The translations under genes were made by a program, and so were the position numbers. Positions 219-12,481 of a stretch of 12,481 nt of DNA are shown here, piece by piece. Every line of letters starts with the position of its first letter. The first letter of the stretch is position 1. Under the pieces are notes generated by a model. The model did no database searches. It had not been told where the DNA came from and was given only the letters and a program-made list of their open reading frames with translations. The stretch covers positions 1 through 12,481 of the forward strand of contig CALCOR010000203.1 of NCBI GenBank assembly GCA_937897085.1. The letters are read 5' to 3'. The DNA comes from an uncultured euryarchaeote (GTDB lineage: Archaea > Thermoplasmatota > Poseidoniia > Poseidoniales > Thalassarchaeaceae).

Positions 219-1466
219 GTGTTCCCCGAATGTGTCGAGTGTCGCGGCGTGCGCGGCATGTGCGGAATTGATCCCTGTCCACTGCTCGCAGAGGTGCGCT
301 CGCGGTTGCCGACGTTTCAGCCGCGACGGGTTGACGAACTGAACGGACCGAGCCCTCCGTCGGTGTTCGTAGGGCGCTACAACTACCCGAAGATCACTGC
401 GGGGCCGCTGGCAATTGTGGCTGGGGACGAGGAAAGTGAGTCATTGCCGGCTCCCGCCGATCCAGCAGACCTCTACGGCCAGCCACTGGAGACGGTGGCG
501 GCACGCGGAGTGAACCTCGTGCGCGGGAGGCAGGCGGTGGGGGTCACGGACGCACGCTCACCGGGAAGAATCCTGCAGACGACGCAGGAGTTGGCAATGG
601 CGGAGCGCGACGTCGATATCGAGATGAGTTTCAGGAATCCTATCCATCTCGGCGGTCAACCCACGTTCGACTCGCTCACTCGGCCACTAGGACCCACTGG
701 TGAGGTCATACGTGCTGAGGTGACCAGCAACGCGGTGATACCACGCAAGGTGGATTCGGTCGTGGACGAGACCCACCTGTTGGCGACCGACGCCGTCGAA
801 GAACTGAACCAGACCGGCGTCGGCGAAGCACACCTGACGCGACTGCTCTCGGCAGGGCTGTTGGGGCATCAGCAGCGAAGGCGGTTGGTGCCGACGCGGT
901 GGGCGATCACGGCGACCGACGACATGCTCGGCAAACGGCTCTTCGAGCAGGTGCGCGACCTTCCTTCACTGGGGGCGGTCGAATGGCGGACTGCCGAATA
1001 CCTCGACAACACATTCCACATCATCCTCACTCCCGGCGCATGGGCATTCCACATGCTCGAGTGCTGGCACAAGGGCTCACTCTGGGCTTCAGAGATGCGC
1101 GTGATCGGTGATTGGGAGGAGGAGAAACCGCGTACTGACTACGCCGCCAGGGTGACCGGGGCGTACTACGCTGCGCGACTGGCGGTGTTCGAGCATCTGC
1201 TGGCCCGAGGCAGGAGCGGGTCCTGCCTAATCTGGAGGGACATCGGCCCTGGATACTGGGCACCGGTGGGGGTGTGGCTAATCCGAGAGGCGATGCGTGA
1301 CGCCATGAGCAACCCCGGACGACAGTTCGATTCACTGGGAGGGGCTGTTGAGTTCGTGGCGGAACGAATCAGCAACCCGAAGGTGTTGCGCGACTCCTGG
1401 TTCCTCAAGCGTACTCGACAGAGCCGCCTCTCTGAATACAGCGAGTCGACTGCGACTCAGTCCTGA
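219..1466 (+). CDS. nreA: Nre-family archaeal DNA repair protein with N-terminal zinc-binding Cys cluster
   Basis: Archaeal Nre proteins act in DNA damage repair and are thought to work with the sliding clamp PCNA. With the GTG start at 219 the protein has 415 residues, close to the family's usual size. Residues 5-20 hold a four-Cys cluster (C5, C8, C15, C20) likely to bind zinc. The diagnostic block GPSPPSVFVGRYNYPK follows at 43-58, and later RLVPTRWAITATDD and a conserved Trp/His-rich segment fit the family. Near the C-terminus, QSRLSEY (Q401, L404, Y407) matches the QxxLxxY/F form of a PCNA-interacting peptide. The frame stays open to the window edge, so TTG at 9 or ATG at 69 are possible starts, but the His/Cys/Asn-rich extension they add looks non-coding. 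GTG 219 keeps all four Cys; ATG 258 would lose two. The 3' end overlaps the convergent coiled-coil gene by 10 bases. Family assignment is strong; the choice between NreA and NreB is less certain. Confidence 0.88.
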   Translation: MFPECVECRGVRGMCGIDPCPLLAEVRSRLPTFQPRRVDELNGPSPPSVFVGRYNYPKITAGPLAIVAGDEESESLPAPADPADLYGQPLETVAARGVNLVRGRQAVGVTDARSPGRILQTTQELAMAERDVDIEMSFRNPIHLGGQPTFDSLTRPLGPTGEVIRAEVTSNAVIPRKVDSVVDETHLLATDAVEELNQTGVGEAHLTRLLSAGLLGHQQRRRLVPTRWAITATDDMLGKRLFEQVRDLPSLGAVEWRTAEYLDNTFHIILTPGAWAFHMLECWHKGSLWASEMRVIGDWEEEKPRTDYAARVTGAYYAARLAVFEHLLARGRSGSCLIWRDIGPGYWAPVGVWLIREAMRDAMSNPGRQFDSLGGAVEFVAERISNPKVLRDSWFLKRTRQSRLSEYSESTATQS

Positions 1467-2461
1467 GAGCGCCGGCGAGGGCCACCACGTCGGGGGGTGG
1501 CTGCCCGCTTGCCACGCTTCTTCTGGGGTGAGGTCCGCTCAGTCTCGGCGGCTCCACCCGCGCCAAGTGACAGGCTTCCTTCAGCAAGCAGTTGACTGAT
1601 CAACGAATCAGCTAATTCCTCATCCTCGGTGGGTTTGCGTGAACTCTCCTCAATCTCGCGATTGTGATCGTCGATCCATGCTTGGCGCTCGGCTCGCTCT
1701 TGCTTCAGCTCGTCACGAATCTCAGTCACCTTCTCAATCAGGCCCTGCATCGCCTGATGCACCTCATCGGCCGCCTCTCGACTGGCGACGAACAGGCTGT
1801 GCAATCGGTCACCCTCCGCTTTGAGGAAGTCTCGGTCTGCGAACAGTGGCTCGATCTCTGTCCACAGTTCATCGGCCTGTGTGTGGAACTTGACCATCGC
1901 CTCATGCTCCATATCTGCCTCAGCCCTGAGTTTCTCGATCGAGCCATCGAGGTCGTCCAGATCTATCTTCACACGCACCTCTTCAGAGACCATCGGCTCG
2001 AGCGCGATGACCTCCTCGCGCAGCGATTTGAGTTGCTTGAAAATCTGCTTCTCCTTGGCGATGGTGACGGTGCTGTCGGTTTCCAGACGGCGCTCAAGGT
2101 TGTCCATCTCCGCCCGCTTCTCCGAAAGTTGCACCACCACCGATTGTCCCTTCCCCTTGTCACGGGCCCCCTTGGAACGGGAGAACAGGCCGCGCAACTG
2201 CTCCTGGATGGCATCCCGCCTGGCCTGGTGCGTCTTCGCCTCAGCGCGGATTTCCTTCTGCTCCGCCAGTTTCTCCTTAATGCGGTCGCGCAGTTCCTTG
2301 TACTGCTCCTGGATGGTGTTGCGCTGGTCGGCGTGCGCGCGGGCGTTGTCGTTGTTGCCGGCCCGCTGGTCAGCCATGCGCTTCAACTTCGACTCCATTG
2401 CGTGCAGGCGGGTGTGCAGGTCGTCGCTCTCCTCGCCTGAGGATTCTGTGTCAGCCGACAT
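1457..2461 (-). CDS. Coiled-coil protein 1 (COG1340-like) with basic C-terminal tail
   Basis: This 334-residue protein is almost entirely charged alpha-helix, and no enzymatic motif is visible. It resembles the archaeal coiled-coil family COG1340, whose members are sometimes mislabelled phosphoserine phosphatase. The marks are a NLERRLET...EKQ segment at about 121-151, a helix of the form LKAEGDRLHxxFVxxxxxADEVH at 213-235, and LISQLLAEGSLSLG at 287-300, a loose match to the family's terminal 'G-x-L-(S/T)' motif. Residues 312-331 form a Lys/Arg-rich tail (KKRGKR, RRGGPRRR), suggesting contact with nucleic acid or acidic partners. The ATG at 2461 was preferred to an in-frame GTG at 2482 because a TATA-like TTCAAAT lies about 27 bases upstream of the ATG, consistent with a leaderless transcript. 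It lies downstream of the DtxR gene on the same strand with an 89-base gap. Precise function unknown. Confidence 0.85.
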   Translation of the reverse strand: MSADTESSGEESDDLHTRLHAMESKLKRMADQRAGNNDNARAHADQRNTIQEQYKELRDRIKEKLAEQKEIRAEAKTHQARRDAIQEQLRGLFSRSKGARDKGKGQSVVVQLSEKRAEMDNLERRLETDSTVTIAKEKQIFKQLKSLREEVIALEPMVSEEVRVKIDLDDLDGSIEKLRAEADMEHEAMVKFHTQADELWTEIEPLFADRDFLKAEGDRLHSLFVASREAADEVHQAMQGLIEKVTEIRDELKQERAERQAWIDDHNREIEESSRKPTEDEELADSLISQLLAEGSLSLGAGGAAETERTSPQKKRGKRAATPRRGGPRRRSQD

Positions 2462-2484
2462 CAGGTCGCCGAACCGAGCCACCC

Positions 2485-2491
2485 ATTTGAA
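2485..2491 (-). promoter_or_regulatory. TATA-like box for coiled-coil gene 1
   Basis: The minus strand reads TTCAAAT here, centred about 27 bases upstream of the ATG at 2461. That is the spacing expected for an archaeal TATA box driving a leaderless transcript. It suggests this gene has its own promoter in the 89-base gap after the DtxR gene. The match is short and AT-poor, so it is tentative. Confidence 0.35.
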
Positions 2492-2550
2492 GGAACGGGC
2501 TTGGCAGACGACTTAGATGGGACAGAAATCAATTCGGGCAACTGCATGTT

Positions 2551-3201
2551 TCAGCCCGTGCGTGCGAGAATCCTCGCTTGCAGGGAGTCCGATATCTGCA
2601 TCTCGACTCCAGCGACCTCGAACACGTCCTGGACTCGACGAATCTCAGCGCCAGCATGCAATCCCTGCTCTGACAGCGTGCGGCGCTCGACACCATCGAG
2701 CACCAGCAACTCGACAGTGGCCAACACACCTTCAGGAAGTGCCTTGAGCGGCAACAGCAGGTGCGATAGGTCAGCGTCGATGTCACGGCGAACTTGAGGG
2801 ATCGACTCTCCTGAGGGGGTGACCTCCGGGTAGTCAAGAAGACGGTCTATAGCAAGTTCCAACTCATCGGTCAATGCATGCTCCAGTCTGCAGGCGGCGT
2901 CATGCACGTCTCCGTCGAAATCAAGCATCTGAACCAAGAAAACCTCCATCAGACCTTCACGGCGCTTCACCCGAGATGCGAAGGCAAGACCTTCTTCGGT
3001 GAGGTGGACACCTTTGTAGGGCTCATGATCGAGCAATCCCTTGCCCCCCAGCCGCTTGAGCATCTCGCTGGCGCTCGCGGCGCTCACATCCATCGCTTCA
3101 GCGACCTGGCTTGTGCGGATCGGCTCGCCAGGATTCCCTTCTGCCAATCCGTAGAGCGTCTTCATGTACATCTCCTCGAACTCGCGAATTGGCTCGCTCA
3201 T
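2551..3201 (-). CDS. DtxR/IdeR-family metal-dependent transcriptional regulator with FeoA/SH3-like domain
   Basis: This 216-residue protein is a metal-responsive DNA-binding repressor of the DtxR/MntR family. Residues 1-75 form the winged helix: EMYMKTLYGL at 10-19, the recognition helix near 40-51, and the wing ending KGVHLTEEG. Residues 76-125 form the dimerisation and metal-binding domain, and about 150-214 resemble the FeoA/SH3-like C-terminal domain. The primary metal site is of the iron type: M11, C104, E107 and H108 correspond to DtxR M10, C102, E105 and H106. Met at the first position argues against an MntR-type manganese sensor, which has Asp there. In the ancillary site, E86 and H100 are kept but DtxR H79 is replaced by Glu (E82). 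The start is supported by GGTGG four bases upstream of the ATG. It lies 60 bases downstream of the surface protein gene on the same strand. Targets cannot be read from this window. Confidence 0.92.
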   Translation of the reverse strand: MSEPIREFEEMYMKTLYGLAEGNPGEPIRTSQVAEAMDVSAASASEMLKRLGGKGLLDHEPYKGVHLTEEGLAFASRVKRREGLMEVFLVQMLDFDGDVHDAACRLEHALTDELELAIDRLLDYPEVTPSGESIPQVRRDIDADLSHLLLPLKALPEGVLATVELLVLDGVERRTLSEQGLHAGAEIRRVQDVFEVAGVEMQISDSLQARILARTG

Positions 3202-3205
3202 CGGA

Positions 3206-3210
3206 CCACC
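3206..3210 (-). promoter_or_regulatory. Ribosome binding site of the DtxR-family gene
   Basis: The minus strand reads GGTGG four bases before the ATG at 3201, matching the 3' end of archaeal 16S rRNA. It fixes the start and suggests the gene is translated from a leadered transcript, possibly one that reads through from the surface protein gene. Confidence 0.5.
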
Positions 3211-3261
3211 CCTGCGCTTCGGGGGTGGCGCGATGACGTAACGATTCCTGATGAGCAGCTG

Positions 3262-5904
3262 TCAGGAAATCTCAGCCTGGAACTCTACCTTGCACGCACC
3301 GCAGCGGGCGCGGACGGGTCGGCGATCAATCGGTACGCGTAGCCGTTGGTTGCACTTAGGACAGCGGATCTCATCGCTGGCGGAGCGAGCGGTCCATTCA
3401 CCATCCCGCTGTCCAACACCGGGGCGTTCGGACCTCTGCGCGGTCGCCCTCTTCGGCTTGGGTGCAGGTTCCGCCTCCGATACCGGTTCTGGCTCGGGCT
3501 CAGGCTCTGGATCAGGCTCCGGTTCCGGATCACTATCCCGTTCTGGCTCGGGTTCTGGTTCGACGGCGAACGTGTGGGTGCAGGATGGACAGCGGGCAGA
3601 ACCGTCGTAAGCGGCAGGCACGCGCAGATGCTGACCGCAGGCGGGGCATCCAACCTCCCGTTTCTCATCGGGCGCGGATTCGGTCTTTCGTGCACGCACG
3701 CGGGCGCGAGCCTTCTCGCGCGCCTGACGTCTGGCGCCCCGTCGGGCAGAGCGCTCCTGCGGGTCCTGCTGCCGCCAGAGAATGGCGTAGCGAGCGGAGA
3801 TGGCCAACACCAGCCCCGCAGCCGCGCCAATGAGGAGAGTGGCCCATGGGATATCGAACGACTGGGTGAGCGACGAAGTCGCTGACGGGAATGACTTGCC
3901 CGCGATAAAAGACGCATCACCAACGACCCACTCGAGATCTAGGTCCACCAGCGACCCGCTCGGCCAAGAGTTCAACTCGATTGATCCTGAGTGACTGTCA
4001 TCGACAGCTACTGAGGGTGCATCCCCAGTCCAGAGGATCTCGTGCGTTCCAGCCACCATCAAGGTCAGAACTCCATCCTGTGCCACATCATTGCCTGAAT
4101 TCGTCAGTGTGTAGCCGATGCTCACAGTGCTGCCAGCCGCGGGGACAGCGGGAGTCGAACCACCGAGGATGGCGCTCAACTGGACGGTCGGCGCGAACAC
4201 CGCACGTGAATCCTGCAGTGTGGACATCCCCGATGCGGTCCATCCAACCGGGGTGACCAGCACCCATACTGTGTCCGCGCTGTCTGGTGTACCGAATCCT
4301 ATGTCCAATGTACGCTGACCAGATTCCAGCAATATCGTGGTGCGCAGCACCTCGAACGTGTCAGAGCCGGAATCGTATCCCGCCACCAGTTCCACTGAGC
4401 GACTGCGACCTTGGGACAACGTGAGGCTCGCCTTGGCATCCAAACCGTCAGACACGCTCCATGTCGGCACGTCGAGTGATACGTCCAGCACCTGACTCGG
4501 GAGCACGTTCAGTTCGATCGTGCCGCTCAACGACTCATCGACCATGCCATCCTCACTGAGCACGACCCAACTGATGTTGCGCTGGCCGAATCCCGAACTC
4601 AGGTTCAATTCCGCAGTCAACTGGAGGCTGTTCCCCATATCGAACGATCTGATTGCGCCTTCGGAGAACGCGTCATCATCCTGAAGGATCAGTCGGGCAT
4701 TCCCCGCTAGATCACCACCATTGTGGACCAGTGCGCTGGCACTGGCGGAATCACCGAAATGGAACGGTGAGCCAGAGATGGTGATCCCAGAACTTCCAGC
4801 GGGGCTGAAGTGGGCGGATTGCATGTTGTATTGGTGGAGGAAAGTGATTGACGAGTCCGTGTGGATGCGCTGACCTTCGCTGACACCACAAGAGAGGTTT
4901 CCGGGTCTTGCGGTGAATGAGAACGAGCGGTTCAGTGACGAGTTGGTAACGACTTGCAACTGTTCCGAGAACACCGTCTGCGACGACGATGGGAATTCGC
5001 ACTCGAGGTTGCCACTCCAATCGACCTCGCCGTCGTTTCCGAGAGTGACGTTCCACTCCGCCGTCTCACCGAGCCCAGCATCGTCTAATCTCCCCGAATC
5101 AGCCGTCAACTGCAGGCGCGCCAGCGGTGGTGGGCCTACCTGAACCGTGAGTGTGCGAGAATCATCGCTGGAATCCGAGTCGCCGACAGCGAGGAGTGAA
5201 ACCGTCAGTTGATACTGCCCCTCGGACAACTGCGCCGTGCTGAACACGATCTGCGCCACGCCCGTTGCGTTGATGCTCAAGTTCCCATCGGCCACGTCCG
5301 CTCCCAAGCCGTCGACCGCCTCCCACTGTCCGCTCCATGCCACCTCACCCGAGTTGGCCACCGGAACCGTAACCTGCAACTCATCCCCGTCCCGAACACT
5401 CTGGTTGCCGCTTGGGATTCCTCCTGAAAGCGGGGTTGTCACCCATTGGCCGACCGGTTCGATGCTCACGTCATGAGGAAAGAGGCGTGTGACCGACTGA
5501 TTGTAGTCGCCTGTGTGGCTGGAGTTCGAGGCGCCTACGTCACCGGCCAACAGCAATTGCAACTGATGTTGTCCCGGCGGTACCGCAGGGAACGTCACGC
5601 TCACCGGTTGGCTGCCATCAGCGCTCAGGTTCAGTGTAACAGTCGAGTTTCCGAGTTCGTTGGACGAGATGGCGGTGAGAGTGGCTGTCACCGTTCCATT
5701 GGCGGCTGAGCCGGCGGTCTCGGCGACGGTGAAGTTGACCATGACGTCTCCGACCCCGACCCCGCCGTCACCATCAACTGAAACAGACGCCTCCTCGATG
5801 AGCAGCCCACCGCCGCTTGCCCCGACCGTGGGAAGCAACGGGAGCAGCACTGCCGCAAACAGCAGCAGAGAGATGGCGGCGGCGCGCGAACTGGTGTACA
5901 TCAT
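3262..5904 (-). CDS. Large surface protein: signal peptide, Ig-like ectodomain, one TM helix, two cytoplasmic zinc ribbons
   Basis: This 880-residue protein starts MMYTSS and has a hydrophobic signal segment at about 9-29. The long ectodomain (about 30-684) is beta-rich and looks like tandem CARDB/Ig-like repeats, with more than a dozen N-x-S/T sequons (for example VNFTV, NSSLNRS, RNISW) consistent with N-glycosylation. It contains two Cys (LECEF, NLSCG) that could pair. A single transmembrane helix lies at about 685-710, followed by an Arg/Lys-rich stretch that should be cytoplasmic. Two short zinc ribbons follow, C753/C756/C772/C775 and C848/C851/C868/C871, both of the form CPxC-x-(Q)-x-L-R-V-P...C-x-x-C, separated by a Glu-Pro repeat linker (782-818). 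The specific role is not recognisable. The topology suggests an envelope protein that couples an outside adhesion or sensing domain to an inside partner. ATG 5904 directly precedes another ATG and has only weak SD support. Confidence 0.87.
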   Translation of the reverse strand: MMYTSSRAAAISLLLFAAVLLPLLPTVGASGGGLLIEEASVSVDGDGGVGVGDVMVNFTVAETAGSAANGTVTATLTAISSNELGNSTVTLNLSADGSQPVSVTFPAVPPGQHQLQLLLAGDVGASNSSHTGDYNQSVTRLFPHDVSIEPVGQWVTTPLSGGIPSGNQSVRDGDELQVTVPVANSGEVAWSGQWEAVDGLGADVADGNLSINATGVAQIVFSTAQLSEGQYQLTVSLLAVGDSDSSDDSRTLTVQVGPPPLARLQLTADSGRLDDAGLGETAEWNVTLGNDGEVDWSGNLECEFPSSSQTVFSEQLQVVTNSSLNRSFSFTARPGNLSCGVSEGQRIHTDSSITFLHQYNMQSAHFSPAGSSGITISGSPFHFGDSASASALVHNGGDLAGNARLILQDDDAFSEGAIRSFDMGNSLQLTAELNLSSGFGQRNISWVVLSEDGMVDESLSGTIELNVLPSQVLDVSLDVPTWSVSDGLDAKASLTLSQGRSRSVELVAGYDSGSDTFEVLRTTILLESGQRTLDIGFGTPDSADTVWVLVTPVGWTASGMSTLQDSRAVFAPTVQLSAILGGSTPAVPAAGSTVSIGYTLTNSGNDVAQDGVLTLMVAGTHEILWTGDAPSVAVDDSHSGSIELNSWPSGSLVDLDLEWVVGDASFIAGKSFPSATSSLTQSFDIPWATLLIGAAAGLVLAISARYAILWRQQDPQERSARRGARRQAREKARARVRARKTESAPDEKREVGCPACGQHLRVPAAYDGSARCPSCTHTFAVEPEPEPERDSDPEPEPDPEPEPEPEPVSEAEPAPKPKRATAQRSERPGVGQRDGEWTARSASDEIRCPKCNQRLRVPIDRRPVRARCGACKVEFQAEIS
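3451..3561 (-). repeat. Glu-Pro repeat linker (hexanucleotide repeat)
   Basis: The coding strand carries an imperfect tandem run of six-base units encoding Glu-Pro and Asp-Pro dipeptides, ending in an AEPAPKPK-like segment. It links the two zinc ribbons of the surface protein at residues 782-818. Such acidic proline-rich stretches behave as stiff, extended spacers. The DNA repeat is prone to length changes by slippage. Confidence 0.8.
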
Positions 5905-5999
5905 CCCGGTGAGCCCATGAGGGGTTCACATACCTTGCCGACTGCAATATGGGTGAACGCCCAACCTTTATGCGAAATCCGCAGGTCGAGCGGACGACC
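5905..5999. promoter_or_regulatory. Divergent promoter region between the surface protein and coiled-coil gene 2
   Basis: This 95-base region separates two divergent genes. On the plus strand TTTATG at 5967-5972 is a good TATA-like box about 30 bases upstream of the ATG at 6000, and an in-frame ATG falls inside that box. On the minus strand a weaker GTATGTG sequence lies about 25-30 bases upstream of the ATG at 5904. Both arrangements suggest near-leaderless transcripts from a compact shared control region. Confidence 0.45.
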
Positions 6000-6869
6000 A
6001 TGGAACTTGAGGAGATAGTCGCGCTCGCCCCGGAGGGGGTGGCCGAGAACATCGTCGCCCGGAGAATCGAACTCCGCGAGCAGCTTCCAGCCGTGATCGA
6101 ACAACGAAAAGTCGAGGTCGACTACCTGAAACCGCTGGTAGAGGAGAACCGGCTCTCGCGGGACCGCACTACATCGCAGGTGCACGAATTGAAGCAGCGA
6201 CGGAACGCCTGCCAGGTCGAAGCGCGGGGACTGAGGGCCCAACTGGCCGAGACGCGTGAGAAACTGCTCAGCGAGGGGAACATGCGCAACCCCGACCCAG
6301 CATGGGCCAAGGAGAGGCTCGAGGAGCGCATCTCTGAACTGGATGACAAGTTGCAGAAGCAGGCACTCGATCTGAAGACCGAGCGGGAGTTAATCGGCGA
6401 AATGCGTCAACTGTCGCGGCGCCACGAGGAATGGGTCGAACAGAATCTAGCCAAGAATCCGGAACTCAAGGATTATCGCGAAGGGTGGGAGAGGCACAAG
6501 TCTCTGATGGACGAGGCGCAGGAATGCCACACCGAGATGACCGGCCTCGCTGCTCAGAGTGAAGATGAACACACTCGCTTCGAGGAGACGCGTCACGTTC
6601 TGCGCGAATCGATGCGCCAACTGAATCGCGCACGTTCCCTGATGGCTCAGTCTGACGAAGCCATCTCCTACTGGAACCACAGGCTCAAACATGGCTTCAA
6701 CGAAATCGGCGACAACACCGGCGACTTGCTCGCCCCAGGTGCCAAGGTCGCTGCTGGAGGACACTCCTCGATGGCTCGTGAGGCACATCAGGGTCGTCGG
6801 ACTAGTCGGACTCGACGGACTCGTCGGGATAGTCAGGCTCGGCCGGATGCTGGAGGCGAAGAGGAATGA
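6000..6869 (+). CDS. Coiled-coil protein 2 (COG1340-like) with Arg-rich tail
   Basis: With the ATG at 6000 the protein has 289 residues, mostly charged coiled coil. The segment ISELDDKLQKQALDLKTERE at 111-130 is the clearest COG1340-like signature in the window, matching the family's 'I-x-x-L-x-x-x-L-Q...L-x-L-x-x-E' block. The His-containing helix around 166-200 corresponds to the later helix of its paralogues. The usual C-terminal 'GExLSxEEL' motif is absent. Instead there is a Gly/Ala-rich stretch (241-254), an Arg-rich tail at 266-281 built from a 9-base tandem repeat, and a short acidic end. In-frame ATGs at 5949 and 5970 would add up to 17 residues, but 6000 was chosen because a TATA-like box at 5967-5972 fits a near-leaderless start there. 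The stop overlaps the start of coiled-coil gene 3 (ATGA), so the two are probably translationally coupled and may form a hetero-oligomer. No enzymatic motif. Confidence 0.82.
   Translation: MELEEIVALAPEGVAENIVARRIELREQLPAVIEQRKVEVDYLKPLVEENRLSRDRTTSQVHELKQRRNACQVEARGLRAQLAETREKLLSEGNMRNPDPAWAKERLEERISELDDKLQKQALDLKTERELIGEMRQLSRRHEEWVEQNLAKNPELKDYREGWERHKSLMDEAQECHTEMTGLAAQSEDEHTRFEETRHVLRESMRQLNRARSLMAQSDEAISYWNHRLKHGFNEIGDNTGDLLAPGAKVAAGGHSSMAREAHQGRRTSRTRRTRRDSQARPDAGGEEE
6795..6830 (+). repeat. Four-unit 9-base tandem repeat encoding an Arg-rich tail
   Basis: Four consecutive in-frame 9-base units share the core CGGACT: cgtcggact, agtcggact, cgacggact and cgtcgggat. They encode RRT-SRT-RRT-RRD near the C-terminus of coiled-coil protein 2. 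The last unit has diverged. This looks like a local expansion that produced a basic tail. Confidence 0.8.
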
Positions 6870-7927
6870 GCGCCGAAGGTGGCAGAAAGGGCACGCGCGG
6901 CGGCCAGGGCCGCGGCCGAGGTAGCCGTGGAGGTGGCAGAGGCGGGAAGGGAAAGAGGCGACACGATTCCAACCTGTTCGATGACCTCGATGATCTCGAG
7001 GCCTACGAGATTCGTGAGCGACTGGCGCAGCATCGCGCCGGTTTGCGAGCGACCGAGCAGCAGCACGATTCGCTGCAATCCGAGCGAAGAGCTCTCATTT
7101 CCACCGTCCAGTTGCTGCGTGATGCTGTCGGCAAGAGCAGTGGCATCAGCCGCGAACGAGGGAAACTCCTGAAGGAATTACGCGAGCGGCGTAAGCGGGT
7201 GGATGAACAACGAAACATCCGAGATAGCATCAACGAACGCATCGCCCCGCCATCCTCCTTGATCGATTCACTGCTGAAAAAGACCCTCAAGCGGCTGACC
7301 GTACTGCCTGACGACTTGTTGAAGATGCCCAACCTGCCCACCGAGATCAAACAGTTCTCATTCCTGTTCGAACTCCAGCAGATGCACGCACAGAAGAATC
7401 TCAGCGACGCTGCCCACGACGAATACGTCAAGTTGATGCGCAAACAGCAGAGGACTATCGATAATCTCGATGCGCTGAAGGACGAGCGCGAGCAGATCGC
7501 CAGCGTGACGACCAGTGAGGATCCCCGCCTGAAGGAGATGAAGGTCAATCGCAAAGAGGAGAAACAACTCAACAAACGCATCGCCAGCATGCTTGACACC
7601 ATACTCTCTCAGCGTGATGAGATCAAGGGTCACCGGCGTGAGATCGGTCGTCTCGAGGCGTTCCTGCGCATTCGCACAGACGCGGAGCGTAAGGGGCACA
7701 CTGTGCAGCCACGCATACAGGACATCCAGCAGCGAGCGGCAAGTGGCGGCGCTCTCTCGCTCGAGGAGTTGTCTCGCTTGATCTCAAGCGGTGGCCTGAG
7801 CGACCTTGACAGTCGAGAGGAGGAGAAGCCATCCCGGAGCACGCGGGTAGAGCCACCCAAACCCAAACGGCGCAAGGCGAAGGCGAGGCGCGGTAAACCC
7901 GGTAGGCAGAAATCAACCCAGGACTGA
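6866..7927 (+). CDS. Coiled-coil protein 3 (COG1340-like) with RGG-rich N-terminus and basic C-terminus
   Basis: This 353-residue protein has three parts. Residues 5-32 are a Gly/Arg tract with repeated RGG and RG motifs, of the kind seen in RNA-binding proteins. Residues about 40-280 are a long helical region with heptad-like charged repeats, interrupted by a Pro-containing segment near 127-160 (APPSSLIDSLLKKTLKRL, then PDDLLKMPNLP). The C-terminal part holds a family-like motif, IQDIQQRAASGGALSLEEL at 284-302, and a Lys/Arg-rich tail (331-350) ending STQD. The ATG overlaps the stop of the preceding coiled-coil gene by four bases, and GGAGG at 6852-6856 gives a ribosome site with 9-base spacing, which fixes the start. 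Both ends being strongly basic suggests nucleic-acid binding, an inference. The central region is the most diverged of the four paralogues. It could be a structural subunit partnering coiled-coil protein 2. No enzymatic residues are visible. Confidence 0.85.
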   Translation: MSAEGGRKGTRGGQGRGRGSRGGGRGGKGKRRHDSNLFDDLDDLEAYEIRERLAQHRAGLRATEQQHDSLQSERRALISTVQLLRDAVGKSSGISRERGKLLKELRERRKRVDEQRNIRDSINERIAPPSSLIDSLLKKTLKRLTVLPDDLLKMPNLPTEIKQFSFLFELQQMHAQKNLSDAAHDEYVKLMRKQQRTIDNLDALKDEREQIASVTTSEDPRLKEMKVNRKEEKQLNKRIASMLDTILSQRDEIKGHRREIGRLEAFLRIRTDAERKGHTVQPRIQDIQQRAASGGALSLEELSRLISSGGLSDLDSREEEKPSRSTRVEPPKPKRRKAKARRGKPGRQKSTQD

Positions 7928-7968
7928 GAGCCGCAACCTCGATGCGCAACCACCGAGGTCGCCAACCG

Positions 7969-8466
7969 ATGGTCGAACTCGCTTGGCGGCTGTATCCCGA
8001 CGCAGCGCTGGCGCTCGATGAGGCTGCTTGGAGGCGCTGCTCACAACTGGTCGAGGAGTGTACCGGCGAATATTACGAGAGTGAACAACTTCAGCGACTG
8101 CCGCTCGCTGAGGAGTTTGGATGCCTGGTGCTGGAATCGATCCGGCGTCCTGGGCGACCCCTTGGTCTGCTGTTCAGCATGCGCTTGGACGAGACCACCG
8201 CACGGGTGCTGCTGTTCCTCGTCGAGTCTAATCTACAGAACAGGGGGCTCGGGGAACAGGCATGGGAGGAGTTCGCGCAACTAGCGAGGCAGGACGGAGT
8301 TGACTGGGTGCAGTTGGAAGTTAGAGAGGATAACTTGGATGGTCAGAGGTTCTATCACCGATTCGGACTCGAAGCCGTTGGCTGCTTGGAATCCTACTAC
8401 GGAGACGGTGGCGACGGGATGCTCATGCGAGGTCCACTGATGAAGCAGACGCCACAGATTGGCTGA
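7969..8466 (+). CDS. GNAT-family N-acetyltransferase (RimI-like)
   Basis: GNAT enzymes transfer an acetyl group from acetyl-CoA to an amine, often a protein N-terminus in the RimI branch. The 165-residue protein shows the acetyl-CoA pyrophosphate-binding loop QNRGLG at 90-95 after the strand ARVLLFLVES. Motif B then follows: LEVREDNLDGQRFYHRFGLE at 116-135, then YYGDGGDGMLM, as in RimI-type enzymes (LEVRxxNxxAxxFYxxxGF, YYxDGxDA). The substrate cannot be predicted. ATG 7969 was chosen over ATG 7942 because GAGGT lies nine bases upstream and the extra nine residues look unrelated. It follows coiled-coil gene 3 by about 40 bases on the same strand and may share its transcript. A possible role is acetylating a neighbouring protein, but that is speculation. 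Confidence 0.88.
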   Translation: MVELAWRLYPDAALALDEAAWRRCSQLVEECTGEYYESEQLQRLPLAEEFGCLVLESIRRPGRPLGLLFSMRLDETTARVLLFLVESNLQNRGLGEQAWEEFAQLARQDGVDWVQLEVREDNLDGQRFYHRFGLEAVGCLESYYGDGGDGMLMRGPLMKQTPQIG

Positions 8467-8504
8467 CAGCGCCGTTTTTCTCCGCGGACGGTCTCCGCTG
8501 GCTG

Positions 8505-8852
8505 ATGCGACAACAAGTTCTCGAGGAATTCGCCGCCGCCGAGGGGGTGGTATGGGCTGGAATTCTCTCAGGGGAGGGCTTCATCCATGAAGCGGTCGGC
8601 GCAGACTCATCGAACCTCGAAGGGGCGGGATCGCTCGCACCGGCGATGCTCGACGCCTCCGACGCGCTCAGCTCAGCAAGCGAGAGAGGCGCCACGACGA
8701 GAGTGACTGCTCTGGCGACTGCGGGTACTCTCGTGTGTGAGCGGCTCGCCCCAGACTGGCATCTGCTCGCCCGCTTGGAATCTGGCGCCAACCTCGGTCT
8801 GCTCCGCATCGCACTCTCAGGATGCTGCGAGAGACTCCGCGAACTTCTGTGA
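8505..8852 (+). CDS. Roadblock/LC7-domain protein
   Basis: This 115-residue protein fits a single Roadblock/LC7 domain. It has an N-terminal helix (VLEEFAAAEGV), two strands with a turn (VVWAGILSGEGFIHEAV), a central helix (about 38-62), the strand pair TRVTALATAGTLVCERL and HLLARLESGAN, and a final helix beginning LGLLRIALSGCCERL. The 'ANLGLLR' turn is typical of MglB-like members. Roadblock proteins dimerise and usually regulate Ras-like GTPases such as MglA or scaffold signalling and motility complexes. No GTPase is encoded in this window. No Shine-Dalgarno sequence is seen. The frame is open further upstream without an ATG, so a non-standard earlier start overlapping the GNAT gene cannot be excluded. 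It converges with the KaiC-like gene across 22 bases. Confidence 0.75.
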   Translation: MRQQVLEEFAAAEGVVWAGILSGEGFIHEAVGADSSNLEGAGSLAPAMLDASDALSSASERGATTRVTALATAGTLVCERLAPDWHLLARLESGANLGLLRIALSGCCERLRELL

Positions 8853-8874
8853 GTCGGGCAATCGGTGTGCTGTA

Positions 8875-9558
8875 CTAATCGAACAGTGGACCCATGATGC
8901 TGATGCCGCCATTACTGGCATCAATCGCCTGCTTCTCCATCGAATGGTTCACGTGACGCATCTTCTCAATCTGCAGGGTGCGCACGATCTTCCCGTTCCT
9001 GCGATCCAGTCCGAGGGAGAGAATCGCATCTGCGATGAAGCCCTCATTGCCCTGGAGTTCAGCATGCTCCCCGGACTGTCGTTCGGTGACTATCAGGGTG
9101 TAGAGTCCCTGTGAGCGCAGGAAGTCGAAGAATCCGAACATCCGCTTGCGCATGTCCGCATCCACGGTTGTCAGGCTGTAGATGGCCCCCAGACTGTCGA
9201 GTACGAATGTGGTGAAGGCATGCCCGCGCTCCTGCTTGAAATGCTGGATCATCCTACGGGTGAACTTCAGGTAATCCATCGCCTCGTTCTCCTTGCGCAG
9301 TTCTGTGAAGTCGGTAATCTGCAGGTTCGGGGGAAGGTCGATGCGCATCGACTGGCAGGACTTAAGCAGGCTGTCGACCGTCTCTTCAACTGTACAAAAG
9401 AGACCGAACTCCCCCGTGCGACGCAGATGATTGGCGACCAAGGATAGTGCGAATCCGGTCTTCATCGACCCGGGCGGACCGGTCACCAACGTGAGATACG
9501 GAGGGGACACGTCACTCTGCATCACCCGCTCCATACCGGGAATCCCACCGATGAACAT
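8875..9558 (-). CDS. KaiC-like RecA-superfamily ATPase with atypical P-loop
   Basis: This is a single-domain KaiC-like ATPase (COG0467 type) of 227 residues. Walker A is GPPGSMKT at 27-34, with Met where nearly all P-loops have Gly. The paired glutamates E58-E59 (FCTVEET) match the catalytic pair of KaiC-family ATPases, and Walker B is TTFVLDS with D121. TER at 158-160 and the closing strands FIADAILSLGL and IEKMRHVNHS...GGISIMG follow the KaiC pattern. These proteins are usually hexameric or filamentous ATPases that act as switches in signalling, or as remodelling factors. It is not ArlH or RadA by visible motifs. An upstream in-frame start at 9627 would add 23 Arg-rich residues unlike the family, so ATG 9558 was chosen. 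It is divergent from coiled-coil gene 4 across a 188-base region and convergent with the Roadblock gene, so a link to either is possible but unproven. Confidence 0.87.
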   Translation of the reverse strand: MFIGGIPGMERVMQSDVSPPYLTLVTGPPGSMKTGFALSLVANHLRRTGEFGLFCTVEETVDSLLKSCQSMRIDLPPNLQITDFTELRKENEAMDYLKFTRRMIQHFKQERGHAFTTFVLDSLGAIYSLTTVDADMRKRMFGFFDFLRSQGLYTLIVTERQSGEHAELQGNEGFIADAILSLGLDRRNGKIVRTLQIEKMRHVNHSMEKQAIDASNGGISIMGPLFD

Positions 9559-9746
9559 CGCTACCGACGGCGGGTAATGCCGACGCCGACTTAATCGTTG
9601 CCGCGGAAGACACCCTCTCAGTCTCAACGAGCGCCTCAGTGGATGTGGCGGGGAAATGACAGTCGTTAAATGTGGGCTACGGGTGGCACTTCCAGCGCGG
9701 CACGGCCCTCAGGGGACGCAGAACGAACAAAGGGAGCGGAGACTGA
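9559..9746. promoter_or_regulatory. Divergent promoter region between the KaiC-like gene and coiled-coil gene 4
   Basis: This 188-base region holds TTAAAT at 9666-9671, a TATA-like box for the plus strand that would give a leader of about 50 bases. A minus-strand GATTAA at about 9591-9596 lies about 35 bases from the KaiC-like ATG. GGAG at 9738-9741 is five bases before the ATG of coiled-coil gene 4 and acts as its ribosome site. No RNA gene or clear inverted-repeat operator was recognised. Confidence 0.45.
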
Positions 9747-10607
9747 ATGGAGGGGGAACTCCGTCAGTTGACAAGCCAAATCGATAAACTGGTCTCAGAA
9801 CACCGCACCAGCCGCGATGAATGGAACGCCCGCACTGTAGAATACCGCACTCGCCGTGATAAGATCGGCGGGAAGAAGCGCGGGATGTTCGACGAGATAC
9901 AACGTCTACGGATGATTCGCGACGAAGGCAACGAGAGCGTCAAGTCTGCGAAGAAAGAAAGAGACGCGGGTAACTTGTCGGTGGCCAAGGCGAAGGAGCG
10001 ACTCCAGGAATTGCGTGGCGACGACGCAGATCATAAACCCAAGGGGCCGAACATCCACAGCCTCAGGAAAAAACTCAACGAGATGGAGGACGATTACGAG
10101 ACGGGAAGGTTCGGGGGCGGTAAGAAGGAGAAGGAGGCCGTCGACGCGATGCGTGAACTTGACCGTCAAATCAAGAAACTGAACTCGATACAGGAAGACG
10201 ACAGTGACCTCAGTAGGGCATTGCAGGCTCGCATAGAGGCAATCGAAATCCAAGAAGTGGCACACCAGAAGGTGGTCGAGGAAGTGGAGAGAGCGCAGAA
10301 GGCCCACGTATTGATGCTCGAACTCCGTGAAGAGGTCAATCGGCTCACAGAACTGCACGAAGAAGCTCATCAAGCGTTCGTCGACTCGAAAATGCACGCG
10401 GACTCTGAGCACCGCCGCTACATCGTCGCCATGCGTATCATGTATGGAATTCGCTACCTGTTCGATGCCAAGGAGGCGCGCACGGCCGGACGCGAACCGA
10501 CGCGGGTTCAGGCGCGCGTCGAGGTCCAAGACCTGATGTCCAAGCTCATGAGTGGGGAGACACTGTCCACCGAGGAGTTGATGGGTATCCACAGAGACGG
10601 AGATTGA
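9747..10607 (+). CDS. Coiled-coil protein 4 (COG1340-like), canonical member
   Basis: This 286-residue protein is the closest of the four to the usual archaeal COG1340 pattern in length and layout. The N-terminal helix (1-90) is followed by a SLRKKLNEMEDDYET...KEKEAVDAMRELDRQI block at 105-142. A long helix carries the His-marked HEEAHQAFVDSKMHADSEH at 204-222, and the terminal motif LMSKLMSGETLSTEEL is at 263-278. It lacks the basic tails of the other three. The ATG is preceded by GGAG five bases upstream. Its TGA lies 14 bases before the purP ATG, and purP's ribosome site sits in that gap, so the two are almost certainly co-transcribed. Function is unknown. Some databases call relatives phosphoserine phosphatase, but no phosphatase motif (such as DxDxT) is present. 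Confidence 0.88.
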   Translation: MEGELRQLTSQIDKLVSEHRTSRDEWNARTVEYRTRRDKIGGKKRGMFDEIQRLRMIRDEGNESVKSAKKERDAGNLSVAKAKERLQELRGDDADHKPKGPNIHSLRKKLNEMEDDYETGRFGGGKKEKEAVDAMRELDRQIKKLNSIQEDDSDLSRALQARIEAIEIQEVAHQKVVEEVERAQKAHVLMLELREEVNRLTELHEEAHQAFVDSKMHADSEHRRYIVAMRIMYGIRYLFDAKEARTAGREPTRVQARVEVQDLMSKLMSGETLSTEELMGIHRDGD

Positions 10608-11779: not shown

Positions 11780-11821
11780 GGGCTGGCGCGGGTTCAAGGG
11801 CCGTCGTGGTTGCACCGATTA

Positions 11822-11827
11822 GAGGGG
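11822..11827 (+). promoter_or_regulatory. Ribosome binding site of the Lgt-like gene
   Basis: GAGGGG lies six bases before the ATG at 11834, a good Shine-Dalgarno match and spacing. It supports this start for the gene that runs off the window end. Confidence 0.55.
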
Positions 11828-11833
11828 TTGAGC

Positions 11834-12481
11834 ATGCAGTTCCCGCTCTGGATTGATCTCGGCTTCGTCAGCCTTCATCCGCATTTAGTCCTCGAGGCTC
11901 TGGGATACATCGTCGGGCTGAGCCTGATGGCCCGTGAGGGGAGCCGCAGAGGAGATTCGCTCGACGGAACTCACCGAGGTCTGCTCATCATCACGGCCCT
12001 GCTCGGAGCAATCATCGGTGCCAAGACGCTCGCATGGCTGGAACACGCGCCCCAGACGCTGCAATTAGCGAGTGAACACCCATTTCGGCTCATCGGTGGC
12101 AAGACCATCGTCGGTGGACTTCTAGGTGGGACTCTGGCAGTTGAACTGGTGAAGAAGAGGCTGGGGGTCACCGAGCGTACCGGCGACATCTACGTCACAC
12201 CTTTGCTCGTCTCCATCAGCATCGGCAGGCTCGGGTGCTTCCTGTCCGGGATGGATGACATGACCTTCGGATACCACTCCGATCTCCCTTGGGCTGTCGA
12301 TTTCGGTGACGGCCCGCGCCACCCGACCCAGCTCTACGAGATTCTCTTCCTGTGTTATCTGGGCCTACGCCTCGGCAAGCATGAGCGTGACGGGCTCCAA
12401 CTTCCACCCGGCGCCCGCTACCAACTGTTCATGCTCATCTATCTCGGCTGGCGCCTCTCTGTCGATTTCATCAAACCTGCA
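11834..12481 (+). CDS. Lgt-superfamily membrane protein (prolipoprotein diacylglyceryl transferase-like), 3' end outside the window
   Basis: The frame runs from ATG 11834 to the last base, giving 216 residues without a stop, so the gene is cut by the window edge. Hydrophobic segments near 18-32, 48-68, 86-106 and 120-138, and again past 170, fit a multi-spanning membrane protein. Lgt-type marks are GGKTIVGGLLGG at 88-99, the signature region GRLGCFLSG at 131-139, RHPTQLYE at 162-169, and WRLSVDFIKP at 206-215, equivalent to the Lgt Arg/Glu block. Bacterial Lgt adds diacylglycerol to the lipobox Cys of secreted proteins. Here the usual Asn of the GRxGN signature is Cys, and the catalytic-loop His of E. 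coli Lgt (H103, in 'FHGG') is Val (V93). It is therefore a divergent subfamily and its reaction is uncertain. The start has a clear ribosome site 54 bases after purP. Confidence 0.82.
   Translation, partial: MQFPLWIDLGFVSLHPHLVLEALGYIVGLSLMAREGSRRGDSLDGTHRGLLIITALLGAIIGAKTLAWLEHAPQTLQLASEHPFRLIGGKTIVGGLLGGTLAVELVKKRLGVTERTGDIYVTPLLVSISIGRLGCFLSGMDDMTFGYHSDLPWAVDFGDGPRHPTQLYEILFLCYLGLRLGKHERDGLQLPPGARYQLFMLIYLGWRLSVDFIKPA

What the first reader, a model, noticed from the sequence alone, without database searches (positions are those of the whole stretch)
1457..10607. Four diverged COG1340-like coiled-coil paralogues clustered within about 9 kb
Four separate genes (1457-2461, 6000-6869, 6866-7927, 9747-10607) encode charged coiled-coil proteins of 286-353 residues. 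Different members share an 'ELxxLE/Lxx...EKE' segment (1, 2, 4), a His-marked later helix (1, 2, 4) and a 'GxxLSxEEL'-like tail (3 and 4, loosely 1). This local density suggests tandem expansion and hetero-oligomer formation, perhaps a filament, ring or scaffold complex. They are interleaved with an ATPase, a Roadblock protein and an acetyltransferase. Function of the family is essentially unknown.
Basis: partly seen in the sequence, partly recalled or inferred. Interest (0 to 1): 0.8.

Follow-up and report, generated by a model that had tools for sequence, protein, structure and literature searches.

The report
Archaeal coiled-coil quartet, likely RNA scaffold
Four related hairpin-shaped proteins of unknown function sit together in ocean archaea, and in a sister family one of them carries an RNA-tailing enzyme of a kind otherwise known from eukaryotes, which suggests that the set works on RNA, perhaps at the ribosome.

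Summary
The four genes are true paralogues of Pfam DUF7121 (COG1340-like): profile comparison links five of six pairs at 96.6-99.4%; CC2-CC3 is weak (32.7%). In 115 genomes of the order, CC3 and CC4 share a contig in 102 of the 108 that have both, always within 3 kb; CC1 and CC3 in 94 of 108, within 8.1 kb. The acetyltransferase, Roadblock and KaiC genes between them are optional. CC4 is the widespread archaeal member. CC2 and CC3 also occur as an adjacent, usually overlapping pair in three other families of the phylum, beside DnaG in six of eight loci. Function is inferred: basic tails on CC1 and CC3 in this order; ribosomal-stalk, SRP54 or similar neighbours of DUF7121 elsewhere; and, in the sister family, a Cid1/TUT4-type terminal nucleotidyltransferase fused to CC3 (domain in 39 of 115 genomes) with its catalytic residues kept and usually the uridine-type histidine. 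Best reading: a hetero-oligomeric, RNA- or ribosome-associated coiled-coil scaffold, to which one lineage fused a 3'-tailing enzyme. I saw no experimental function, and the window itself lacks the enzyme.

The parts
1457..2461 (-). CC1: DUF7121-like coiled-coil protein with a basic C-terminal tail
   Evidence: ORF (ATG at 2461, GTG at 2482); Pfam DUF7121 28.5 bits against cut-off 29; profile match in 113 of 115 order genomes, two of them (G016, G029) only partial or cross matches; hhalign to CC4 99.4%
1457..1558 (-). CC1 basic C-terminal tail (net charge +8 over the last 40 residues)
   Evidence: net +4 to +10 in 19 of 19 orthologues examined
1556..1618 (-). CC1 form of the family C-terminal motif (LLAEGSLSLG)
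   Evidence: alignments
6000..6869 (+). CC2: diverged DUF7121-like coiled-coil protein
   Evidence: ORF; 5 of 14 orthologues match DUF7121 at E<=0.01, the window copy does not; hhalign CC2-CC4 97.7%
6866..6869 (+). ATGA overlap of the CC2 stop and CC3 start, suggesting translational coupling
   Evidence: 4-nt overlap in 16 of 18 loci with both genes; the other two overlap by 1 and 56 nt
6866..7927 (+). CC3: most diverged paralogue; its orthologue in the sister family carries an N-terminal terminal nucleotidyltransferase
   Evidence: ORF; match in 110 of 115 order genomes; hhalign CC1-CC3 98.7%, CC3-CC4 96.6%; fusion
6866..6970 (+). CC3 disordered Arg/Gly-rich N-terminal tail
   Evidence: sequence (by eye shared only with L061 among 21); model confidence under 50 for residues 1-33
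7715..7786 (+). CC3 form of the family C-terminal motif (SGGALSLEEL) with two short predicted helices
7808..7924 (+). CC3 basic disordered C-terminal tail (net +9 over the last 40 residues)
   Evidence: net +5 to +15 in 21 of 21 orthologues of the order
9747..10607 (+). CC4: the widespread archaeal DUF7121 member
   Evidence: Pfam DUF7121 64.7 bits; 111 of 115 order genomes; hhalign to 20 DUF7121 proteins from outside the order 100%, E 4.5e-57
10530..10604 (+). CC4 C-terminal DLMSKLMSGETLSTEELM motif
   Evidence: many near-invariant columns in alignments A2 and A4
3262..5904 (-). conserved divergent neighbour: long membrane protein with CARDB and two zinc-ribbon-like stretches at its end; role in the system not shown
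   Evidence: present in 21 of 21 loci; Pfam
7942..8466 (+). optional neighbour: GNAT acetyltransferase, RimI-like
   Evidence: rimI 52.7 bits, cut-off 86.4; 12 of 21 loci
8505..8852 (+). optional neighbour: Roadblock/LC7-like protein
   Evidence: Pfam 18 bits, cut-off 23; 14 of 21 loci
8875..9627 (-). optional neighbour: KaiC-like ATPase
   Evidence: 8 of 21 loci

Best explanation
CC1-CC4 are four DUF7121 paralogues; CC3 and CC4 are predicted, and CC1 and CC2 by homology expected, to be antiparallel coiled-coil hairpins with a small tip. They most likely form a hetero-oligomeric scaffold, with CC2 and CC3 made together as a pair, that binds RNA or the ribosome, in this order helped by the basic disordered tails of CC1 and CC3. 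In the sister family CC3 also carries a terminal nucleotidyltransferase that would add non-templated nucleotides, mostly uridines, to the 3' ends of bound RNAs; the window's lineage would use the scaffold without it. Shown by computation: homology, the conserved cluster and CC2/CC3 pair, the tails, the fused enzyme domain and its intact catalytic residues. Inferred: assembly into one complex, RNA or ribosome binding, and tailing activity.
For: Homology and synteny. CC2/CC3 4-nt overlap in 16 of 18 loci. Outside the order a CC2-like/CC3-like pair (hhalign to CC2 99.5%, to CC3 99.6%) in seven loci of families f11, f26 and f28, overlapping by 1-4 nt in six and 15 nt apart in one; DnaG, recalled to be an archaeal RNA-exosome partner, lies upstream in five of the seven and beside a truncated eighth copy. 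Basic C-tails in 19 of 19 CC1 and 21 of 21 CC3 of the order, while the 20 intact CC4 tails are net acidic. Fused domain: MTPAP-like palm E about 1e-30 and PAP_assoc 2e-10 to 2e-15 in three of four CC3 proteins given, the fourth (L077) having neither; closest solved structures TUT7, TUT4, URT1, CutA and Cid1. All 39 order genomes with the palm domain are in the sister family, 36 of them on the contig of the CC3 match. In 80 loci of named genomes, 78 encode enzyme and CC3 in one frame; GS kept in 80, the first two Asp in 79 (one unread), the third in 80; the uridine-type site is His in 70, Arg in 7, other or gap in 3. Translation-type neighbours of DUF7121 in 20 of 40 genes looked at outside the order.
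Against: No RNA-binding domain is recognised in the coiled-coil parts; basic tails could bind DNA or acidic proteins. CC2 tails vary (-6 to +11). The CC3-like proteins of f11 and f28 end at the motif without a basic tail, so the tails are not a general feature of the pair. CC2-CC3 homology is weak (32.7%), and CC2 is missing or short in L068, L073, L076 and L080. The enzyme is absent from the window's genome and all f1 genomes searched and from some sister-family members (L051, L073, L077, L080), so the core does not need it; recruitment need not reflect the scaffold's role. Neighbour evidence has no random-gene control, is clade-specific, and the DnaG link is also compatible with a DNA role.
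Confidence: 0.53

Rival explanations
1. A DNA or nucleoid scaffold: headless relatives of SMC/Rad50-type coiled coils that organise the chromosome.
For: Weak NCBIfam matches to SMC and Rad50 coiled-coil regions; best Foldseek hit of both models is an archaeal SMC arm, E 1.2e-3 and 5e-3; basic tails could bind DNA; L111 CC4 begins with a stretch that looks like a SAP domain by eye; DnaG, which NCBIfam names DNA primase, lies beside the CC2/CC3 pair elsewhere.
Against: SMC/Rad50-type matches reach at most 22 bits against cut-offs of 300 or more; no ATPase head; the fused enzyme acts on RNA in its known relatives; many DUF7121 neighbours are translation genes.
Confidence: 0.16
2. A cytoskeletal filament, ring or cell-envelope scaffold, perhaps tied to the adjacent membrane proteins.
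For: Conserved membrane-protein neighbours (MEM in 21 of 21 loci, a second membrane-like protein U0 in 18); SRP54 beside DUF7121 elsewhere also fits a membrane-targeting role; long coiled coils.
Against: Predicted hairpins with disordered ends rather than continuous rods; no match to a filament family; does not explain the RNA-tailing enzyme.
Confidence: 0.12
3. Four paralogues in a stable neighbourhood that do not form one complex; CC4 and CC1 keep separate roles and CC2/CC3 form their own pair.
For: The CC2/CC3-like pair exists without CC4 beside it in f11, f26 and f28; CC1 and CC4 have separate counterparts outside the order; CC1 lies on the opposite strand beyond other genes; the block around CC4 is inverted in L061.
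Against: Nearly invariant proximity across 21 genera and two families; shared tail motif in three; close CC2-CC3-CC4 operons in seven loci.
Confidence: 0.19

Closest known systems
DUF7121 (PF23435), annotated as COG1340-like coiled-coil protein
   Same: CC4 and CC1 match it, CC2 through orthologues, CC3 through profiles; CC4 matches over nearly the whole model and shares the C-terminal motif
   Different: Genomes of the phylum show one to three matches; here four diverged copies are clustered, CC1 and CC3 add basic tails, and CC3 is outside Pfam's reach
CC2/CC3-like pair beside DnaG in families f11, f26, f28 of the phylum (found here, unnamed)
   Same: Adjacent, mostly overlapping genes; hhalign 99.5% to CC2 and 99.6% to CC3
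   Different: No CC4 or CC1 alongside in the stretches read; no basic CC3 tail in f11 and f28; no tailing enzyme
Cid1/TUT4/TUT7/URT1 terminal uridylyltransferases (sister-family CC3 only)
   Same: Palm and PAP_assoc domains, GS and Asp triad, usually the uridine-type His
   Different: In archaea and fused to a DUF7121-type coiled coil; 7 of 80 loci have Arg at the specificity site, as CutA has (CutA Arg557 and Cid1 His336 from passages of PMC7498324). Absent from the window
Bfr1, yeast polysome-associated coiled-coil RNA-binding protein
   Same: Analogy only, recalled: coiled coil on ribosomes and mRNA
   Different: No sequence comparison made; no Bfr1 sequence was available
SMC/Rad50 arms
   Same: Antiparallel coiled-coil shape
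   Different: No ATPase head; sequence matches far below the curated cut-offs

Membership tests
DUF7121 / COG1340 | Pfam gathering score reached by the window proteins | tested here: inconclusive
   CC4 64.7 bits over cut-off 29; CC1 28.5, just under; CC2 and CC3 no match
DUF7121 / COG1340 | Profile-level homology of each family to outside DUF7121 proteins | tested here: met
   Against 20 outside DUF7121 proteins: CC4 100%, CC1 99.7%, CC2 99.2%, CC3 96.7%; against the four second copies: CC1 99.9%, CC4 96.7%, CC2 95.4%, CC3 only 1.5%
DUF7121 / COG1340 | C-terminal G-x-x-L-S-x-E-E/D-L motif | tested here: inconclusive
   Clear in CC4 and CC3, shortened in CC1, absent from CC2 by eye
COG1340 as defined in the COG database | Match to the COG1340 profile itself | not testable with these tools
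   No COG library; the link of DUF7121 to COG1340 is recalled. PMC1322226 (passage) calls COG1340 a highly conserved archaeal group of unknown function
Cid1/TUT4-type terminal uridylyltransferase, applied to the window | Palm and PAP_assoc domains | tested here: not met
   Window CC3 and its genome have none; present only in sister-family CC3
Cid1/TUT4-type enzyme, applied to sister-family CC3 | GS motif and three catalytic Asp | tested here: met
   80 loci: GS 80, Asp1 and Asp2 79 (1 unread), Asp3 80
Cid1/TUT4-type enzyme, applied to sister-family CC3 | Uridine-type His in the nucleotide-recognition motif | tested here: met
   His 70, Arg 7, other or gap 3 of 80; the column holds His in two animal TUT4/TUT7 sequences. 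That it equals Cid1 His336 is recalled; no alignment with Cid1 there was seen
Cid1/TUT4-type enzyme, applied to sister-family CC3 | Nucleotide addition to RNA 3' ends | not tested
   Needs an enzyme assay
SMC/Rad50 | ABC-type ATPase head | tested here: not met
   At most 22 bits against cut-offs of 300 or more; proteins of 286-353 aa with no ATPase domain in Pfam
Filament- or ring-forming cytoskeletal coiled coil | Polymerisation | not testable with these tools
   Single-chain models only

The most novel reading that the evidence does not exclude
Poseidoniaceae archaea run a eukaryote-like RNA 3'-uridylation pathway: a Cid1/TUT4-type enzyme, possibly acquired from a eukaryote, was fused to CC3 of an older DUF7121 scaffold bound to ribosomes, mRNA or the exosome, and tags RNAs, perhaps for the RNase R-like exonuclease seen only in the same family. 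DUF7121 would then be a widespread archaeal RNA- or ribosome-associated factor.
Probability: 0.3. Interest if true: 0.88.

Novelty: new variant of a known kind. Interest (0 to 1): 0.7.

Why it matters
DUF7121/COG1340 is widespread in archaea and has no function assigned in what I could read. A conserved four-paralogue cluster, one member of which is naturally fused to a terminal nucleotidyltransferase and pairs with its neighbour beside DnaG in other lineages, gives a first testable hypothesis: RNA, ribosome or exosome association. If the fused enzyme is active, RNA 3' tailing by a Cid1/TUT4-type enzyme would exist in an abundant ocean archaeal group; the paper searches made here listed no report of it.

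Tried and rejected
PDB sequence search with a DUF7121 profile: only generic coiled coils, best E 0.0016. Foldseek on the CC4 and CC3 models and VIA-align on CC4: nothing with E<=0.001, rows are unrelated coiled coils. Long open frames around DUF7121 in other genomes (L246-L253) as possible fusions: long N-terminal extensions that I read by eye as low-complexity or frame artefact; no domain search was made on them. RNase R-like RNB protein as a partner: in 46 of 115 genomes, all sister family; overlap with the tailing domain 34, enzyme only 5, RNB only 12, neither 64. Across the order p=6e-14, but that reflects the clade; within the sister family's 56 genomes p=0.15. It is closer to RNase R (1.8e-52) than to Dis3L2 (5.8e-35). 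Phage records and viral contigs for the tailing domain: none. PADLOC: one weak match among five proteins, CC2 to JetC, 15.7 bits. A eukaryotic donor was not tested by a tree: few eukaryotic sequences were in hand. PAP_assoc in the phylum: 27 of 243 genomes, 26 in the sister family and one in a frame with three stops, set aside. The CC3 profile matched 8 of the 111 phylum genomes outside the order in the sample; one (G162) proved CC1/CC4-like, seven carry the pair. The CC2 profile matched 58 of those 111, best 1.1e-16, mainly coiled-coil cross-matches, many at DUF7121 places. Bfr1 kinship: paper search empty, no sequence to compare. Odds: confidence in the best explanation moved from 0.50 in the draft to 0.53 because of the CC2/CC3 pair beside DnaG, held back by its missing basic tail.
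Full report
WHAT THE WINDOW HOLDS. The window is contig 203 of a 1.87 Mb, 376-contig assembly. Some of its CC3 and CC4 relatives are named marine group II/III euryarchaeotes. The sister family (f2) corresponds to Candidatus Poseidoniaceae: several f2 contigs have the same length as named Poseidoniaceae or Poseidoniales contigs. That the window's family (f1) is Thalassarchaeaceae is my inference. Genes in order: NreA-like (plus), CC1 (minus), DtxR-type regulator (minus), long CARDB/zinc-ribbon membrane protein MEM (minus), CC2, CC3, RimI-like acetyltransferase, Roadblock-like (plus), KaiC-like ATPase (minus), CC4, PurP-like, Lgt-like (plus, open at the end).

THE FOUR ARE PARALOGUES. Single-sequence Pfam finds DUF7121 for CC4 (64.7 bits) and marginally CC1 (28.5 against 29), not for CC2 or CC3. 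With orthologues, 13 of 15 CC1 and 5 of 14 CC2 match at E<=0.01. Profile-profile comparison gives 96.6-99.4% for five pairs and 32.7% for CC2-CC3. Of 20 reversed-sequence controls 18 stay at or below 5.2%; CC3 and CC4 against their own reversals give 53.9% and 28.1%. Against 20 DUF7121 proteins from outside the order CC4 scores 100% (E 4.5e-57); four second copies from f16 score 99.9% with CC1. CC4 is thus the widespread member and CC1 has an outside counterpart. CC2 and CC3 do too: in 145 genomes of the phylum (34 of the order, 111 outside) the CC3 profile matches 42, eight of them outside. Seven of the eight carry an adjacent gene pair (families f11, f26, f28) whose first member matches CC2 at 99.5% (CC4 98.6%, CC3 0.8%) and whose second matches CC3 at 99.6% (CC2 45.7%, CC4 95.7%); the eighth, G162, is CC1/CC4-like there but has a truncated CC2-like copy elsewhere. 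The pair overlaps by 1-4 nt in six loci and is 15 nt apart in L267. DnaG (NCBIfam 514-534 bits, cut-off 300, in the four given) lies upstream in L260, L261, L262, L265 and L266 and beside the truncated copy in L268; L263 is cut by its contig end and L267 shows none (L260 and L265 by eye). In f11 a LonB-like gene stands between. That archaeal DnaG joins the RNA exosome is recalled; the paper I tried was not held.

CONSERVED CLUSTER. In 115 genomes of the order a match exists in 111 (CC4), 110 (CC3), 113 (CC1) and 112 (CC2). The CC2 profile also cross-matches paralogues; by my count of rows 83 genomes reach E<1e-70. CC3 and CC4 are both found in 108 genomes, on one contig in 102, all within 3 kb; CC1 and CC3: 108, 94, within 8.1 kb; CC1 and CC4: 109, 88, within 10.6 kb. 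In 21 loci read in full (the window plus 20 that I chose with CC3 and CC4 on one contig, covering most genera), MEM is present in 21, DtxR in 20, Roadblock in 14, PurP in 13, acetyltransferase in 12 and KaiC in 8. In seven f1 loci CC3 and CC4 are 41-76 bp apart. CC2 and CC3 overlap by 4 nt in 16 of 18 loci. CC2 is missing or short in L068, L073, L076 and L080. In seven f1 loci (L065-L071) the cluster lies between S3Ae and L30e-type ribosomal genes, the latter next to RNA polymerase genes by my reading.

ANATOMY. The CC4 model (mean pLDDT 81.8) is two helices of about 90 residues running antiparallel, with small tip helices and a low-confidence C-terminal pair of short helices. CC3 (77.2) is similar, with disordered ends. 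Structure searches give only generic coiled coils. In the order the last 40 residues of CC1 are positive in 19 of 19 and of CC3 in 21 of 21; CC4 is negative in the 20 intact copies; CC2 varies. The CC3-like proteins of f11 and f28 end at the motif without such a tail; L267 has a short basic one. The window's CC3 also has an Arg/Gly-rich N-terminal tail, shared by eye only with L061.

THE FUSED ENZYME. In many sister-family genomes CC3 is about 700 residues long. Its first 370 match the MTPAP-like palm (E about 1e-30) and PAP_assoc (2e-10 to 2e-15) domains in three of four proteins given; L077 has neither. Nearest solved structures are TUT7, TUT4, URT1, CutA and Cid1. The palm domain occurs in 39 of 115 order genomes, all sister family, 7 of 21 genera, in 36 on the contig of the CC3 match. 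PAP_assoc occurs in 27 of 243 phylum genomes, 26 of them sister family, one hit with stops set aside. A scan of 84,980 species genomes found 131 stretches with the pattern and 96 relatives; the 80 kept carry Poseidoniaceae/Poseidoniales, Euryarchaeota/euryarchaeote or (one) Thermoplasmatota names, and that one matches a sister-family contig by length. The scan used two peptide patterns, so distant relatives could be missed, and 16 relatives were not shown. In the 80 loci, 78 encode enzyme and CC3 in one frame; the catalytic residues are kept (GS 80; Asp1 and Asp2 79 with one unread; Asp3 80); the site that holds His in two animal TUT4/TUT7 sequences is His in 70, Arg in 7, Val, Leu or gap in 3. 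Passages of PMC7498324 say that His336 sets uridine use in Cid1 and that CutA has Arg557 there. One locus lies on the single-contig 2.06 Mb chromosome CM001443.1, so a binning error is unlikely. On a 38-row CC3 tree the label needs one change, in 74% of bootstrap trees; long branches (L073, L080) meet and the tree is unrooted, so gain and loss within the sister family are unresolved. Named non-archaeal hits in the protein search are animal TUT4/TUT7-like proteins and one fungal protein. Transfer from a eukaryote is plausible but untested.

NEIGHBOURS OF DUF7121 OUTSIDE THE ORDER. The CC4 counterpart follows ribosomal L10 and P1 in 3 of 3 f3 loci; it precedes an HTH protein that I read as MBF1-like, Sua5 and an M24 peptidase in 5 of 5 f16 loci; SRP54 lies downstream in 4 of 4 f17 long loci (0.5 to about 7 kb) and right next to it in one f30 locus. 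Of 30 short loci (1.5 kb flanks) 8 show SRP54 and 1 the M24 peptidase. Ten genes occur in both sets, so this is 20 of 40 distinct genes. I made no random-gene control, and the loci were the best matches, not a random draw.

MECHANISM. I read the quartet as a hetero-oligomeric scaffold that binds RNA or the ribosome, onto which one lineage fused a 3'-tailing enzyme. Homology, clustering, the CC2/CC3 pair, tails and the enzyme domain are shown; assembly, RNA binding and catalysis are inferred. An RNase R-like RNB protein occurs only in the sister family (46 of 115) but is not significantly tied to the enzyme within it.

LITERATURE. COG1340 is called a highly conserved archaeal group of unknown function in PMC1322226 (passage). 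Searches for DUF7121 (none), for the enzyme with Poseidoniales or marine group II terms (20 of 99 listed, 15 of 130) and for archaeal uridylation (15 of 89, 12 of 13) listed no paper that reports it; only titles, abstract starts and term counts were seen, plus passages of PMC11646218 and PMC4442281, which speak of uridylyltransferases in eukaryotes. Most subscription papers and all bioRxiv preprints are missing from this library.

Noticed in passing
window 11810-12481: An Lgt-like (prolipoprotein diacylglyceryl transferase) gene, NCBIfam E 1.2e-10, in an archaeon; seen in 1 of 21 loci at this place.
   Followed up: no
window 1457-1466: The NreA-like gene and CC1 overlap tail to tail by 10 bases.
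   Followed up: no
window 3262-5904: Membrane protein with CARDB and two zinc-ribbon-like stretches at its C-terminal end; present in 21 of 21 loci (494-1064 aa as called), divergent from CC2/CC3.
   Followed up: partly
L065:4303-5880 (U0): A membrane-like protein of about 500-600 aa without a Pfam match, between CC1 and DtxR in 18 of 21 loci; absent from the window and L061, and L076 is cut by its contig end.
   Followed up: partly
L262:4847-8087; L261:6238-11471: Outside the order a CC2-like/CC3-like gene pair stands beside DnaG, in f11 with a LonB-like gene between.
   Followed up: partly
L257:1376-3763: An RNase R-like RNB exoribonuclease in 46 of 115 order genomes, only in the sister family.
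   Followed up: yes
L061:8658-10699: The CC4-PurP block is inverted relative to CC3 and KaiC stands beyond it.
   Followed up: no
L111:9096-10166: The f3 (same class) DUF7121 protein has an N-terminal stretch that looks like a SAP domain (by eye, not searched).
   Followed up: no
7 of 80 loci: Arg instead of His at the nucleotide-specificity site of the fused enzyme, as in the C-preferring CutA; a natural U-to-C switch may exist.
   Followed up: partly
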